Position numbers and translations under genes: made by a program | Shown here: piece after piece, positions 32,088-41,523 of the stretch | Layout: every line of letters starts with the position of its first letter | Position numbering within the stretch: position 1 is the first letter of the stretch | Assembly (NCBI GenBank): GCA_019347895.1 | Contig: JAHWKM010000009.1 | Span: 1-46,913 of the forward strand | DNA length: 46,913 bases | Direction of reading: 5' to 3' | Source: Candidatus Parcubacteria bacterium | GTDB taxonomy: Bacteria; Patescibacteriota; Saccharimonadia; Saccharimonadales; 2-12-FULL-41-12 | Notes under the pieces: generated by a model | Seen by the model: the letters and a program-made list of their open reading frames with translations, nothing else | Databases searched by the model: none | What the model was told of the DNA's origin: nothing

Positions 32088-32123
32088 AGTAATTTGATAT
32101 TTATACAATATTATATTTAAGTA

Positions 32124-32152
32124 TTGACATAAAGAAATATTTTTGCTAAAAT
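32124..32152 (+). promoter_or_regulatory. Near-consensus promoter facing a gene-free region
   Basis: TTGACA (32124-32129), 17-base spacer, extended -10 TGCTAAAAT (TAAAAT at 32147-32152). It is one of the best promoters in the window and points toward ~350 bases with no ORF, supporting an RNA gene. Start expected near 32159. Confidence 0.7.
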
Positions 32153-32158
32153 AGCAAT

Positions 32159-32440
32159 TTGTAAGTCCAAAATACTTGGTCTTAAGTACCTTACACATCT
32201 TATTTCGGTAATATATGCCGGAATAAGTAGTTAGATTGTTTTAGAGTCGCTGTCGCTTATAGTGCCAGCGAAGCTTTAATTAGTTGTACCCTCCGCTAAT
32301 TATACGCTTGTTTCGCTCCGCTGGACAGCGGATGGCGAAAGCTCTAAAACAAGCTAATCCCTTTAACCCTGTTCGCTCACGAAGCGCATAGGATTCCCTT
32401 TATCAAGGCGAGCCTGAACGGTTTTCCGTTTTTAGCGGAG
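32159..32440 (+). ncRNA. Candidate structured non-coding RNA
   Basis: Gene-free but highly folded. Helices in order: GTAAG/CTTAC, CTTATTTCGG/CCGGAATAAG (32199-32227), then a large domain closed by TTGTTTTAGAG/CTCTAAAACAA (~32237-32355) that encloses TAATTAG/CTAATTA and TCCGCT-GGAC-AGCGGA. Next come AATCC/GGATT and AGGC/GCCT, and an AACGG-TTTT-CCGTT-TTT terminator-like end near 32437. A near-consensus promoter precedes it. I looked for hallmarks of RNase P, tmRNA and SRP RNA and did not find them. A second, stronger terminator lies at 32511. Confidence 0.55.
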
Positions 32441-32510
32441 AGACACAGCACTTTATATTTTTAATAGTCGTCTGATGTTTCGCTCAAGGGTGGGTTGAAG
32501 GGGTGTAATT

Positions 32511-32551
32511 GGTCAACGAGCGGTGCCCACCCCCTCTCGTTGGCCTTTTTT
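32511..32551 (+). terminator. Strong intrinsic terminator
   Basis: GGTCAACGAG pairs with CTCGTTGGCC across a ~14-base loop, followed by a run of seven T. No coding gene lies upstream on this strand for ~450 bases, so it most likely ends the candidate ncRNA transcript. Confidence 0.7.
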
Positions 32552-39761: not shown

Positions 39762-39912
39762 GGTCCCTTCGTCTAGTGCGAGAAATGCCAGTGGCATTTC
39801 GCAAGGCCGGAGCGCGACGGCGTGAGGCATGCCGAAAAGAATTTTCAGCAGAAAATTACTTTTGGGTAGGATATCTTAATGTCAGAAATATCTGTGGGTC
39901 GAATCCTCAATG
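39762..39912 (+). pseudogene. tRNA-Glu-like copy A, interrupted in the D loop
   Basis: GGTCCCTTCGTCTAG matches the acceptor/D-arm start of a tRNA-Glu. It is followed by an ~87-base folded insert (39777-39863), then GGTAGGATATC and a T-arm-like GGGTCGAATCC. The anticodon arm does not fold properly, so a working tRNA is unlikely even if the insert were removed. Confidence 0.5.
39777..39863 (+). repeat. CAAGG structured element, copy A
   Basis: Hairpin GAAATGCC-AGT-GGCATTTC, then GCAAGGCCGGA, hairpin GCGC-GACG-GCG, GCCG (pairs with CGG), and hairpin AATTTTC-AGCA-GAAAATT. Same layout as copies B1, C and E. Confidence 0.65.
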
Positions 39913-39917
39913 AACTG

Positions 39918-39923
39918 TATAAT
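39918..39923 (+). promoter_or_regulatory. -10 box before tRNA-like copy B
   Basis: TATAAT ends 12 bases before the first base of copy B. The same TATAAT with a 12-base gap precedes copy C, so these copies look individually transcribed. Confidence 0.45.
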
Positions 39924-39951
39924 TATCTCCGTTAAGGCCTCATCGTCTAAC

Positions 39952-40040
39952 GTGAGGATTGCCCGGTGGCAATCTGCAAGACCGGAGCTGCGACGGCAGC
40001 GAGGTGGGGTCGACGAATTTTTCAGCAGAAAAATATCGGT
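39952..40040 (+). repeat. CAAGG structured element, copy B1
   Basis: GTGAG, hairpin GATTGCC/GGCAATC, TGCAAGACCGGA, hairpin GCTGC/GCAGC, GGGGTCGAC (GACC pairs with GGTC), hairpin ATTTTTC-AGCA-GAAAAAT, ATCGGTG. Every helix differs in sequence from copy E but still pairs. Confidence 0.7.
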
Positions 40041-40074
40041 GACTAGGACACCAGGTTCTCATCCTGGCAATGGG

Positions 40075-40146
40075 GTGAGACAAGCCGGGGGCTTGTCGCA
40101 AGGAAACCTACTCTTCAAAACTTGTTTTTGAAAGATGTAGTTTCGG
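40075..40146 (+). repeat. CAAGG structured element, copy B2
   Basis: GTGAG, hairpin ACAAGCC/GGCTTGT, CGCAAGGAAA, long hairpin CTAC-TC-TTCAAAA with TTTTTGAA-AGA-TGTAG, then TTCGGG. Shorter than A/B1/C: the GCGC hairpin is replaced. Confidence 0.6.
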
Positions 40147-40222
40147 GTGAGATGAGCTGGGAGCTGATCGCAAGGACACTTGACTGATTTGGAACTTGTT
40201 TCAAGTAAGTCAATGTTGGGCC
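40147..40222 (+). repeat. CAAGG structured element, copy B3
   Basis: Tandem with B2: GTGAG, hairpin ATGAGCT/AGCTGAT (one mismatch), CGCAAGGACA, hairpin TTGACT/AGTCAA enclosing ACTTG/CAAGT, then TTGGGCC. Same order of parts as B2. Confidence 0.6.
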
Positions 40223-40267
40223 TGCAGAATGTAGGTGCCGAAGGTAGGTCGATTCGAATCGAACATT

Positions 40268-40273
40268 TATAAT
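40268..40273 (+). promoter_or_regulatory. -10 box before tRNA-like copy C
   Basis: TATAAT ends 12 bases before copy C (40286), the same spacing as for copy B. Confidence 0.45.
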
Positions 40274-40285
40274 TAAACGCTACAT

Positions 40286-40401
40286 GGCCTCATCGTCTAA
40301 CGTGAGAAATGCCAGTGGCATTTCGCAAGGTCGGAAGCGCGACGGCGCTGAGACGGGCCCGACGAATTTTTCACAAGAAAAATATCGGTGGGTAGGACGC
40401 C
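40286..40401 (+). pseudogene. tRNA-Glu-like copy C, interrupted in the D loop
   Basis: GGCCTCATCGTCTAACG as in the intact gene, then an ~88-base element, then GGGTAGGACGCCAGG. After this the sequence leaves the tRNA (CTGTCCGGTATAATGC), so only the 5' half is present. Confidence 0.55.
40302..40389 (+). repeat. CAAGG structured element, copy C
   Basis: GTGAG, hairpin GAAATGCC/GGCATTTC, GCAAGGTCGGA, hairpin AGCGC-GACG-GCGCT, GGGCCCGAC (GTCGG pairs with CCGAC), hairpin ATTTTTC-ACAA-GAAAAAT, ATCGGTG. Best-formed copy. Confidence 0.7.
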
Positions 40402-40460
40402 AGGCTGTCCGGTATAATGCAATAATACTTTCTTGTTAGCACAGTCTTTTGAGAAAGCAT

Positions 40461-40535
40461 GGCCTCATCGTCTAACGGTTAGGACACCAGGTTCTCATCC
40501 TGGCAATGGGGGTTCGATTCCCCCTGAGGTCACCA
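40461..40535 (+). tRNA. tRNA-Glu (anticodon CTC), CCA encoded
   Basis: Complete cloverleaf: acceptor GGCCTCA/TGAGGTC (one G-U), D arm GTC/GAC, anticodon arm CCAGG-TTCTCAT-CCTGG with anticodon CTC, T arm GGGGG-TTCGATT-CCCCC, discriminator A and an encoded CCA. It reads GAG codons. It is the only intact member of the four tRNA-Glu-like copies at this site. Its 3' end is repeated at 41502-41523. Confidence 0.95.
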
Positions 40536-40571: not shown

Positions 40572-41294
40572 ATGTCCCGCCAAACCTTCGAACCACTTGA
40601 ATTAATTCCTGCAGACACAGTACCAAGCTATGACATTCTGATGTCTGGTATCAGTCAACCGCCAGACCCTCCTGATCGTGATTATTCTGACTTATTCCCG
40701 CAAAATCACTACAGCCATTTTCAAGGACCACTTGGTCGTTACATGGGCGGCGACCCACAAGTTGGTCACCCGCTCTATACTGCCACACAAGGTTTATACG
40801 CAGCCTACTATTCATTTGCACAACAAGAAAGAGACAATGATTTCCGTCGCACGGAGACTACCGGTCGAGGTTTATCCTCTACAATGCTGCAAAAACATAT
40901 CGGACGATGCATAGCAAAAGGCTACGACAATCTTTTGGAACAAACTGACTCAATTACTGCAATAGAAGCCATTGGCCACTATATTGAAAGTCAGGATATA
41001 GACCGTGCAACTGCATATAATGAAGCGCTAGATTACCACACAAATGAGCTTGCAGCACTTGATCGCGGTGACGAAGAGCCCATACCAACCGAAATTGATG
41101 GAATACCAGTCATTTCCGGCAGAGATATTGCTCTTGCTATGGGCGAAATACCTGAATCAACAGAGGTTGAGTGTGAGCAACGTAAGGAGTGGACGCAAAA
41201 GCAGATAAGTTTTGTTAGGAAGCGTCTTGTTCGTTTACGTTTTGAATACATGTCTGCAACGGCGCTTGCAGAGTTACTAGGTCGAGCCGTCTAG
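40572..41294 (+). CDS. Hypothetical protein in a segment bounded by tRNA-Glu 3' repeats
   Basis: A 240-residue soluble protein, no recognised family. Pro/Asp-rich start (SQPPDPPDRDYSDLFP), a Tyr-rich stretch (LYTATQGLYAAYYSFAQQERD), then a mostly helical acidic region and a basic C-terminal helix (WTQKQISFVRKRLVRLRFEY) ending in AELLGRAV. The frame opens earlier (40506), but that part overlaps the tRNA; ATG 40572 sits at the predicted transcription start. The gene lies between the tRNA-Glu 3' end and a second copy of it, which suggests it entered on a small integrated segment. Confidence 0.55.
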   Translation: MSRQTFEPLELIPADTVPSYDILMSGISQPPDPPDRDYSDLFPQNHYSHFQGPLGRYMGGDPQVGHPLYTATQGLYAAYYSFAQQERDNDFRRTETTGRGLSSTMLQKHIGRCIAKGYDNLLEQTDSITAIEAIGHYIESQDIDRATAYNEALDYHTNELAALDRGDEEPIPTEIDGIPVISGRDIALAMGEIPESTEVECEQRKEWTQKQISFVRKRLVRLRFEYMSATALAELLGRAV

Positions 41295-41384: not shown

Positions 41385-41500
41385 CGGGGAATCGAACGGG
41401 ATTAATTACTCATTAATCCCCGTACCTTGCTCCTCAAGATGCCAGTTGGCATGTTGAGGAGTTGTCTCTAGCAAAACTAAGTTTGTTTTGCGGGGACAAG
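41385..41500 (-). repeat. CAAGG-type structured element, copy D (diverged)
   Basis: Three strong hairpins: TTGTCTC-GCAAAAC / GTTTTGC-GGGACAA, CTCCTCAA-ATGCCA / TGGCAT-TTGAGGAG, and ACGGG-ATTAAT / ATTAAT-CCCCGT. Read on the minus strand the middle hairpin is followed by GCAAGGTACGGGG, as in the other elements. Then comes GTTCGATTCCCC, which is itself tRNA T-arm-like. Confidence 0.5.
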
Positions 41501-41501
41501 G

Positions 41502-41523
41502 CGATTCCCCCTGAGGTCACCAT
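41502..41523 (+). repeat. Second copy of the tRNA-Glu 3' end (attachment-site-like)
   Basis: CGATTCCCCCTGAGGTCACC plus AT is identical to the end of tRNA-Glu (40515-40536). The two copies are ~990 bases apart and enclose one gene and element D. A duplicated tRNA 3' end is the usual footprint of site-specific integration; no integrase gene is present in between. Confidence 0.6.

What the first reader, a model, noticed from the sequence alone, without database searches (positions are those of the whole stretch)
39762..40535. Array of interrupted tRNA-Glu copies carrying a small folded element in the D loop
Seen: one intact tRNA-Glu(CTC) preceded by three partial copies, each broken right after GTCTAAC or GTCTAG in the D loop by an ~88-base element (A, B1, C). 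Copy B is broken again in the T stem by two tandem shorter elements (B2, B3). All begin GTGAG or similar, then a hairpin, then CAAGG, then more hairpins. Hairpin 1 is GATTGCC/GGCAATC in B1, GAAATGCC/GGCATTTC in C and ACAAGCC/GGCTTGT in B2, so pairing is kept while sequence changes. Copies B and C each have TATAAT 12 bases upstream, so they may be transcribed. I know no described bacterial element with this layout. Inference: a small mobile or self-processing RNA/DNA element that targets tRNA-Glu, or tRNA genes with unusual non-group-I introns.
Basis: partly seen in the sequence, partly recalled or inferred. Interest (0 to 1): 0.88.

Follow-up and report, generated by a model that had tools for sequence, protein, structure and literature searches.

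The report
Mobile folded element invading tRNA genes
Tiny Saccharibacteria carry an apparently undescribed family of ~90-base, three-hairpin, apparently mobile sequences that break into tRNA genes at precise spots, while a duplicated piece of each gene keeps an intact tRNA beside the broken one.

Summary
Three partial tRNA-Glu copies (A, B, C) precede an intact tRNA-Glu. Each is interrupted by an ~90-nt element ("EL") of three consecutive hairpins. EL is a multicopy family of the order Saccharimonadales: up to 37 copies per genome, absent from 29 of 61 genomes searched, including the only same-genus relative. It matches no Rfam family. Base pairing is massively supported (27/32 and 24/32 pairs with compensatory double changes; 0/500 shuffles match).

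EL is not tRNA-Glu-specific. Of 87 motif-selected copies, 70 lie beside tRNA genes of nearly all isotypes. In 52 resolved junctions the replaced stretch begins with G, usually after R-G/R-A, and is exactly 3 nt in 38. EL also nests inside other ELs: B3 sits inside B2. Clean empty sites exist in two relatives.

An intact tRNA usually survives because the outer half of the broken gene is kept and the missing half, with promoter or terminator, is duplicated beside it. I read EL as a non-autonomous mobile element acting at DNA level, recognised as a folded strand by an unidentified enzyme. An intron is unlikely. Group I/II introns, IS110 bridge RNA, a dedicated tyrosine integrase and RAYT-driven REPs were considered; the tests run went against them.

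The parts
39762..39776 (+). 5' part of interrupted tRNA-Glu copy A (GGTCCCTTCGTCTAG)
   Evidence: sequence; repeat family D3
39778..39866 (+). EL copy A (long type, H1-H2-H3; begins GCGAG)
   Evidence: model R1 match 39778-39870, 89 bits, (by construction: A was in the model); covariation
39936..39951 (+). 5' part of tRNA-Glu copy B; TATAAT 12 nt upstream at 39918-39923
   Evidence: sequence
39952..40043 (+). EL copy B1 (long type) in the D loop of copy B, replacing GGT
   Evidence: R1 match 39952-40047, 102 bits
40044..40074 (+). continuation of tRNA-Glu copy B (anticodon arm up to the T stem)
   Evidence: 40044-40075 identical to 40480-40511, family D7
40075..40146 (+). EL copy B2 (short type), 5' part, inserted in the T stem of copy B
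   Evidence: R2 match 64.5 bits
40147..40235 (+). EL copy B3 (short type), nested in hairpin 3 of B2
   Evidence: R2 match 63.2 bits; same nesting in L061
40236..40248 (+). 3' remainder of B2 (TGCCGAAGGTAGG) after the nested B3
   Evidence: matches hairpin 3 of members of A4
40286..40301 (+). 5' part of tRNA-Glu copy C; TATAAT 12 nt upstream at 40268-40273
   Evidence: sequence
40302..40392 (+). EL copy C (long type) in the D loop, replacing GGT; an identical copy lies at the end of contig C5
   Evidence: R1 111.5 bits
40393..40412 (+). short tRNA continuation that folds back on itself (TAGGACGCCAGGCTGTCCGG); closely similar hairpin at two loci of G003
40461..40535 (+). intact tRNA-Glu(CTC)
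   Evidence: ARAGORN; Rfam RF00005 62.4 bits
32563..32654 (-). EL copy D, in a partial copy of the first hairpin of a structured sequence upstream of an ORF that reads like dprA (AGAGG|EL|TGGGCAC; intact AGAGGGGGTGGGCACC at about 32515-32545)
   Evidence: R1 107.9 bits; same arrangement in L014 and L018
41386..41522 (+). second kind of folded insert: antisense T arm (41386-41397), hairpins without GTGAG, then a copy of the tRNA-Glu 3' end (41503-41522); ORF 40572-41294 lies between it and the intact tRNA

Best explanation
EL is a small non-autonomous mobile element of Saccharimonadales. Shown: it is a conserved three-hairpin unit of about 90 nt in many copies, present or absent between relatives, inserted almost always in one orientation at defined positions of tRNA genes (T arm, D arm, rarely anticodon loop or variable region), replacing usually three bases that begin with G, mostly after R-G/R-A, and nested in other ELs. 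Also shown: the broken gene keeps its outer half (5' half if EL lies upstream of the intact tRNA, 3' half if downstream), and the other half, with a short promoter or terminator stretch, is duplicated so that an intact tRNA stands beside it; the inner junction often carries a fold-back copy of the target. Inferred: the folded strand with the tRNA sense (as single-stranded DNA or as RNA) is recognised by an unidentified trans-acting enzyme that inserts EL at DNA level; cells survive only if a copy of the lost half arises with or around the event.
For: Covariation: 27/32 pairs (32 long-type copies) and 24/32 (50 short-type copies) with double compensatory changes, 0/500 shuffles. Distribution: 32 of 61 genomes positive, 29 zero; 0-37 copies; G000 has 21 while same-genus G001 has 0. 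Empty sites at the syntenic tRNA-Glu(CTC) next to the histidine kinase gene in G001 and G004, occupied in G000, G003, G042. tRNA association: 70/87 within 400 nt, 68/70 same strand. Precise target: replaced stretch starts with G in 52/52, exactly 3 nt in 38/52. Nesting and tandem arrays. Two tRNA-Lys loci on one contig share the unit at 98.9% within EL while outer flanks differ. Copies within a genome are more alike than between genomes, 0.74 vs 0.68, permutation p<0.002. Antisense insertions in tRNA-Phe keep a G-G|G target on that strand, which fits DNA-level insertion. Outer half kept in the copies screened (56 with EL). G.T pairs exceed A.C mismatches in the helices, 93 vs 15 short type and 43 vs 25 long type, so one strand seems to be the folded one.
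Against: No mobilising enzyme was found; the single-contig genome G040 has 17 copies without RAYT. No transposition event was observed directly. Maintained flanking tRNA sequence and conserved linkers (AAGG, CGGG) could also mean a selected function. Spread between similar tRNA loci could partly be gene conversion. The 87-copy sample was chosen by an exact motif.
Confidence: 0.66

Rival explanations
1. EL is a selected functional RNA (for example a tRNA-linked regulator or processing signal) copied next to tRNA genes, mobility being incidental.
For: Very strong RNA-like covariation with conserved linkers; G.T wobbles exceed A.C mismatches, clearly so in short-type helices; adjacent tRNA halves often identical to the neighbouring tRNA.
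Against: 29 of 61 genomes have none; position, side (up- or downstream of the tRNA) and isotype vary freely; nested copies disrupt other copies; copies in non-tRNA sites.
Confidence: 0.15
2. EL is the attachment site of an integrative cassette, similar in logic to integron attC or a tRNA-integrating island: unit = tRNA half + terminator or promoter + (cargo) + folded site.
For: An intact tRNA followed by a second tRNA 3' end is the classic attL/attR picture; some units enclose genes or longer DNA (window 40572-41294; L055 about 2.9 kb); tandem head-to-tail units; fold-back pairing around EL.
Against: Most genomes have one tyrosine recombinase with or without EL; most units are only about 150-240 bp and carry no gene; EL also inserts in D arm, anticodon loop, other ELs and other structured sequences.
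Confidence: 0.15
3. EL is a REP-like element mobilised by RAYT-type Y1 transposases.
For: RAYT-like proteins co-occur with EL: 16 of 19 RAYT genomes have EL vs 16 of 42 without, Fisher p=0.0009; a tag next to a hairpin and a folded-ssDNA substrate fit the type.
Against: Several RAYT genes here are flanked by their own, unrelated palindromes; in the 16 RAYT loci fetched EL lies directly beside the gene only in G003 contig 4; G012, G040, G044 have 16-18 copies and no RAYT hit; tag GTGAG differs from GTAG; reverse transcriptases also tend to co-occur (p=0.08), so mobile-DNA load may confound.
Confidence: 0.1
4. tRNA genes with unusual introns, spliced at RNA level.
For: Insertion in tRNA loops; compact folded insert; promoter-like TATAAT before B and C.
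Against: About three tRNA bases are missing at most junctions; usually only one tRNA half remains next to EL and an intact tRNA is present; antisense insertions; far smaller than group I/II introns and no Rfam match.
Confidence: 0.03

Closest known systems
REP / BIME elements with RAYT transposases (PMC3733652)
   Same: Small, multicopy, palindromic, tag next to a hairpin, patchy distribution, folded-strand logic.
   Different: Three hairpins, about 90 nt, tag GTGAG, located at tRNA genes with a precise about 3-nt replacement; RAYT genes here carry other palindromes.
Rickettsia palindromic elements (RPE), from general knowledge and PMC3733652
   Same: Small palindromic repeats inserted inside genes of a reduced genome.
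   Different: PMC3733652 reports a CGTC tag for R. conorii RPE; no tRNA specialisation with compensating half-gene duplication is known to me; no direct sequence or structure comparison with RPE was run.
tRNA-integrating islands and integron cassettes (attL/attR, attC)
   Same: Second tRNA 3' end downstream of an intact tRNA; folded site; tandem units.
   Different: Unit usually without genes and without a dedicated recombinase; several target positions per tRNA; also a mirror-image 5' type.
Group I / group II introns in tRNA genes
   Same: Structured insert inside a tRNA gene.
   Different: Too small, no Rfam match, bases replaced, only half a tRNA usually remains.
IS110 bridge RNA
   Same: Structured non-coding part next to target-derived sense and antisense stretches.
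   Different: IS110 transposase detected only in G056 and G060, both EL-negative.

Membership tests
Any Rfam RNA family | score at or above the gathering threshold | tested here: not met
   Searches (gathering; E-value): at gathering only tRNA, RNase P and lysM-TM7, none covering EL
Group I / II intron | intron fold and uninterrupted exons that rejoin | tested here: not met
   no Rfam match; about 3 target bases missing and usually one tRNA half absent
REP/RAYT | cognate RAYT gene flanked by the repeat | tested here: not met
   EL directly beside 1 of 16 RAYT loci fetched; several flanked by other palindromes
REP/RAYT | GTAG tag beside the hairpin | tested here: not met
   tag is GTGAG, less often GTGAA; GTAG tag from PMC3733652
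Tyrosine-integrase island / integron | dedicated integrase linked to copies | tested here: not met
   typically one PF00589 protein per genome irrespective of EL (vs 71)
Integron attC | GTTRRRY/RYYYAAC core boxes | tested here: inconclusive
   by eye only: tRNA-Glu D loop GTCTAAC/GTTAGGA comes close, T-arm sites do not fit
IS110 / bridge RNA | IS110 transposase in host | tested here: not met
   2 of 61 genomes, both EL-negative
Retroelement | reverse transcriptase in EL genomes | tested here: not met
   PF00078 in 10 of 61, absent from G000 and G003
Mobile repeat | presence/absence at orthologous sites | tested here: met
   empty sites in G001 and G004
Mobile repeat | observed transposition | not testable with these tools
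   needs strains or cultures

The most novel reading that the evidence does not exclude
EL is the first known class of mobile element specialised on stable-RNA genes that is recognised as a folded strand, replaces about three bases of its target, and whose surviving insertions duplicate half of the invaded tRNA gene, using an enzyme that is none of the transposase, integrase or RT families tested here.
Probability: 0.4. Interest if true: 0.9.

Novelty: categorically new. Interest (0 to 1): 0.8.

Why it matters
tRNA genes are classic landing sites for large islands, but a tiny folded repeat that breaks them at fixed positions across nearly all isotypes, with survival through half-gene duplication, has no counterpart that I found in Rfam or the searched literature. 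It would reveal a mobile system of Saccharibacteria, which include cultured human-associated members, and a natural folded substrate that could be used to search for its enzyme. It also explains stray tRNA fragments that could confuse annotation.

Tried and rejected
Rfam searches with loose thresholds gave only chance hits to EL. Viral contigs: none; plasmids: none; the annotated phage matches listed were tRNA-Glu only. Tyrosine recombinase, RT, Y1 and IS110 were tested over 61 genomes: no convincing mobiliser; the Y1/RAYT correlation was undercut by the unrelated palindromes beside RAYT genes. Simple duplication followed by decay of either half was rejected because the retained half was the outer one in the EL copies screened. 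tmRNA for the dprA-side structured sequence: not found by ARAGORN. Promoter/terminator scan of the array: no more sites than in shuffles.

Full report
Setting. The window is contig 27 of a 907-kb, 27-contig genome. The family lies in Saccharimonadales (TM7): a genome-collection scan with the H1 motif returned 116 or more stretches, and the records with a stated group are nearly all Saccharibacteria. One exception, a Doudnabacteria contig end (L101), is identical over the region shown to a Saccharibacteria contig (L094) and is probably mis-binned. In a sample of 380 genomes of the phylum, 10 of the 11 positives are in the same order; the eleventh is a hit at the end of a contig and is probably contamination.

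Anatomy. The window shows A, B, C and an intact tRNA-Glu. The insert (EL) consists of H1 (GTGAG-stem-CGCAAGG, with an A.G mismatch near its base), H2 (an internal loop GGA/GA in the long type, a longer bulged stem in the short type) and H3 (long type: conserved bulged A and a 2x2 loop; short type: a 7-bp hairpin with a conserved G.T pair). On 32 long-type copies, 95.2% of cells pair, 27 of 32 pairs have double changes and the covariation score is 0.631 against 0.185 in shuffles. On 50 short-type copies the values are 95.6%, 24 of 32, and 0.572 against 0.167. Sliding the pairs by 1-3 columns drops pairing to 27-45%. The long-type alignment was fitted to its model, so those counts lean towards the structure; the short-type alignment was made by MAFFT without it, its structure then being the RNAalifold consensus. 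G.T cells exceed A.C cells (93 vs 15 short type, 43 vs 25 long type), which suggests that the strand with the tRNA sense is the one folded.

tRNA association. Of 87 motif-selected copies, 70 lie within 400 nt of a tRNA gene, 68 on the same strand. Distances fall mostly into two classes: the tRNA ends 63-109 nt before EL, or starts 124-193 nt after EL's start. Fifty-two junctions could be resolved against the neighbouring tRNA: T arm 30, D arm 15, anticodon loop 5, variable region 2; 14 isotypes. The replaced stretch begins with G in all 52 and is exactly 3 nt in 38; the two bases before it are GG, AG or GA in 47. Because EL itself begins with G, the first G may be shared with the target, so the true loss may be 2 nt. 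Two tRNA-Phe cases are inserted in the antisense strand, again after G-G|G, which points to DNA-level insertion.

Half-gene duplication. Downstream units read: intact tRNA - terminator - fold-back stretch - about 10 nt of tRNA - EL - tRNA 3' part to CCA (31 cases in the screen). Upstream units read: tRNA 5' part - EL - short continuation, often with a hairpin - promoter stretch - intact tRNA (25 cases). The outer half is the one kept. D-arm, anticodon and variable-region sites occur only as upstream units, T-arm sites as both, consistent with duplication of the shorter missing piece. The stretch left of EL in downstream units often carries a reverse complement of the uninterrupted T arm: joint folding energy averages -15.9 against -10.7 kcal/mol for shuffled flanks over 31 units, with many individual cases not better than shuffles.

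Mobility. G000 has 21 copies and same-genus G001 none; 29 of the 61 genomes have none. At the syntenic histidine-kinase/tRNA-Glu(CTC) locus, G001 and G004 have a single tRNA without EL, while G000, G003 and G042 carry EL. In G004 a copy of the tRNA 3' end follows without EL. ELs nest: B3 inside H3 of B2 in the window, the same in L061, and a short type inside H3 of a long type in G040. Head-to-tail arrays occur in G003 and G016. Two tRNA-Lys genes on one contig share the unit almost exactly while outer flanks differ. Copies within a genome are more alike than between genomes (0.74 vs 0.68). The single-contig genome G040 has 17 copies, which argues against an assembly artefact.

Other targets. 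Copy D and its counterparts in L014 and L018 lie in a copy of the first hairpin of a conserved, Rfam-negative structured sequence, in the window upstream of an ORF that reads like dprA. L074, L096 and L107 lie between G-rich and C-rich flanks that could pair; L084 and L103 lie in another conserved element.

Enzyme. One tyrosine recombinase in most genomes, EL or not. RT in 10 of 61, absent from G000 and G003. IS110 only in two EL-negative genomes. RAYT-like Y1 in 19, associated with EL (Fisher p=0.0009), but several RAYT genes carry their own palindromes, EL lies directly beside the gene in only one of 16 loci fetched, and genomes with 16-18 copies lack it. The mobiliser is therefore unknown, and only a few families were tested.

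Novelty. No Rfam family matches it, and the searches of the paper library turned up no description of it; most hits were judged by title and start of abstract, and subscription papers and preprints were not available. If all small palindromic repeats are lumped together, it is a very unusual new variant of that kind; the target choice, about 3-nt replacement and half-gene duplication are why I call it a new kind.

Noticed in passing
window 41386-41522, ORF 40572-41294: A second kind of folded insert, without GTGAG, ends at the same T-arm point (tRNA resumes at C56) with a tRNA-Glu 3'-end copy; one unknown 240-aa ORF lies between it and the intact tRNA. Similar inserts beside tRNA-Ser in L081 and L114.
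   Followed up: partly
window about 32120-32540 (minus), L014, L018: Conserved ~500-nt structured sequence (upstream of a dprA-like ORF in the window) with no Rfam or tmRNA match.
   Followed up: partly
L191-L205 (RAYT loci): Several Saccharibacteria RAYT genes are flanked by gene-specific near-perfect palindromes unrelated to EL.
   Followed up: partly
L009 1-123 (contig C5): Identical second copy of interrupted tRNA copy C at a contig end, with a different left flank.
   Followed up: no
L108 around 3926 (same sequence in L036): Near-complete tRNA-Gln-like gene with anticodon CTA carrying EL in the T arm; no intact tRNA found in the locus.
   Followed up: no
L084 around 2500 (minus), L103 around 7262: EL inside another conserved element (CGGGTGACGTTCGKCGGG..GGGGCGGA.CGGACGGCAGGACCCG) in two genomes.
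   Followed up: no
L173 (G004), after the tRNA at 623-697: tRNA-Glu 3'-end duplication with a short palindrome but no EL.
   Followed up: no
L055 4167-4865: LexA/UmuD-like gene inside a long tRNA-Lys-bounded unit that ends in EL; possible cargo.
   Followed up: partly
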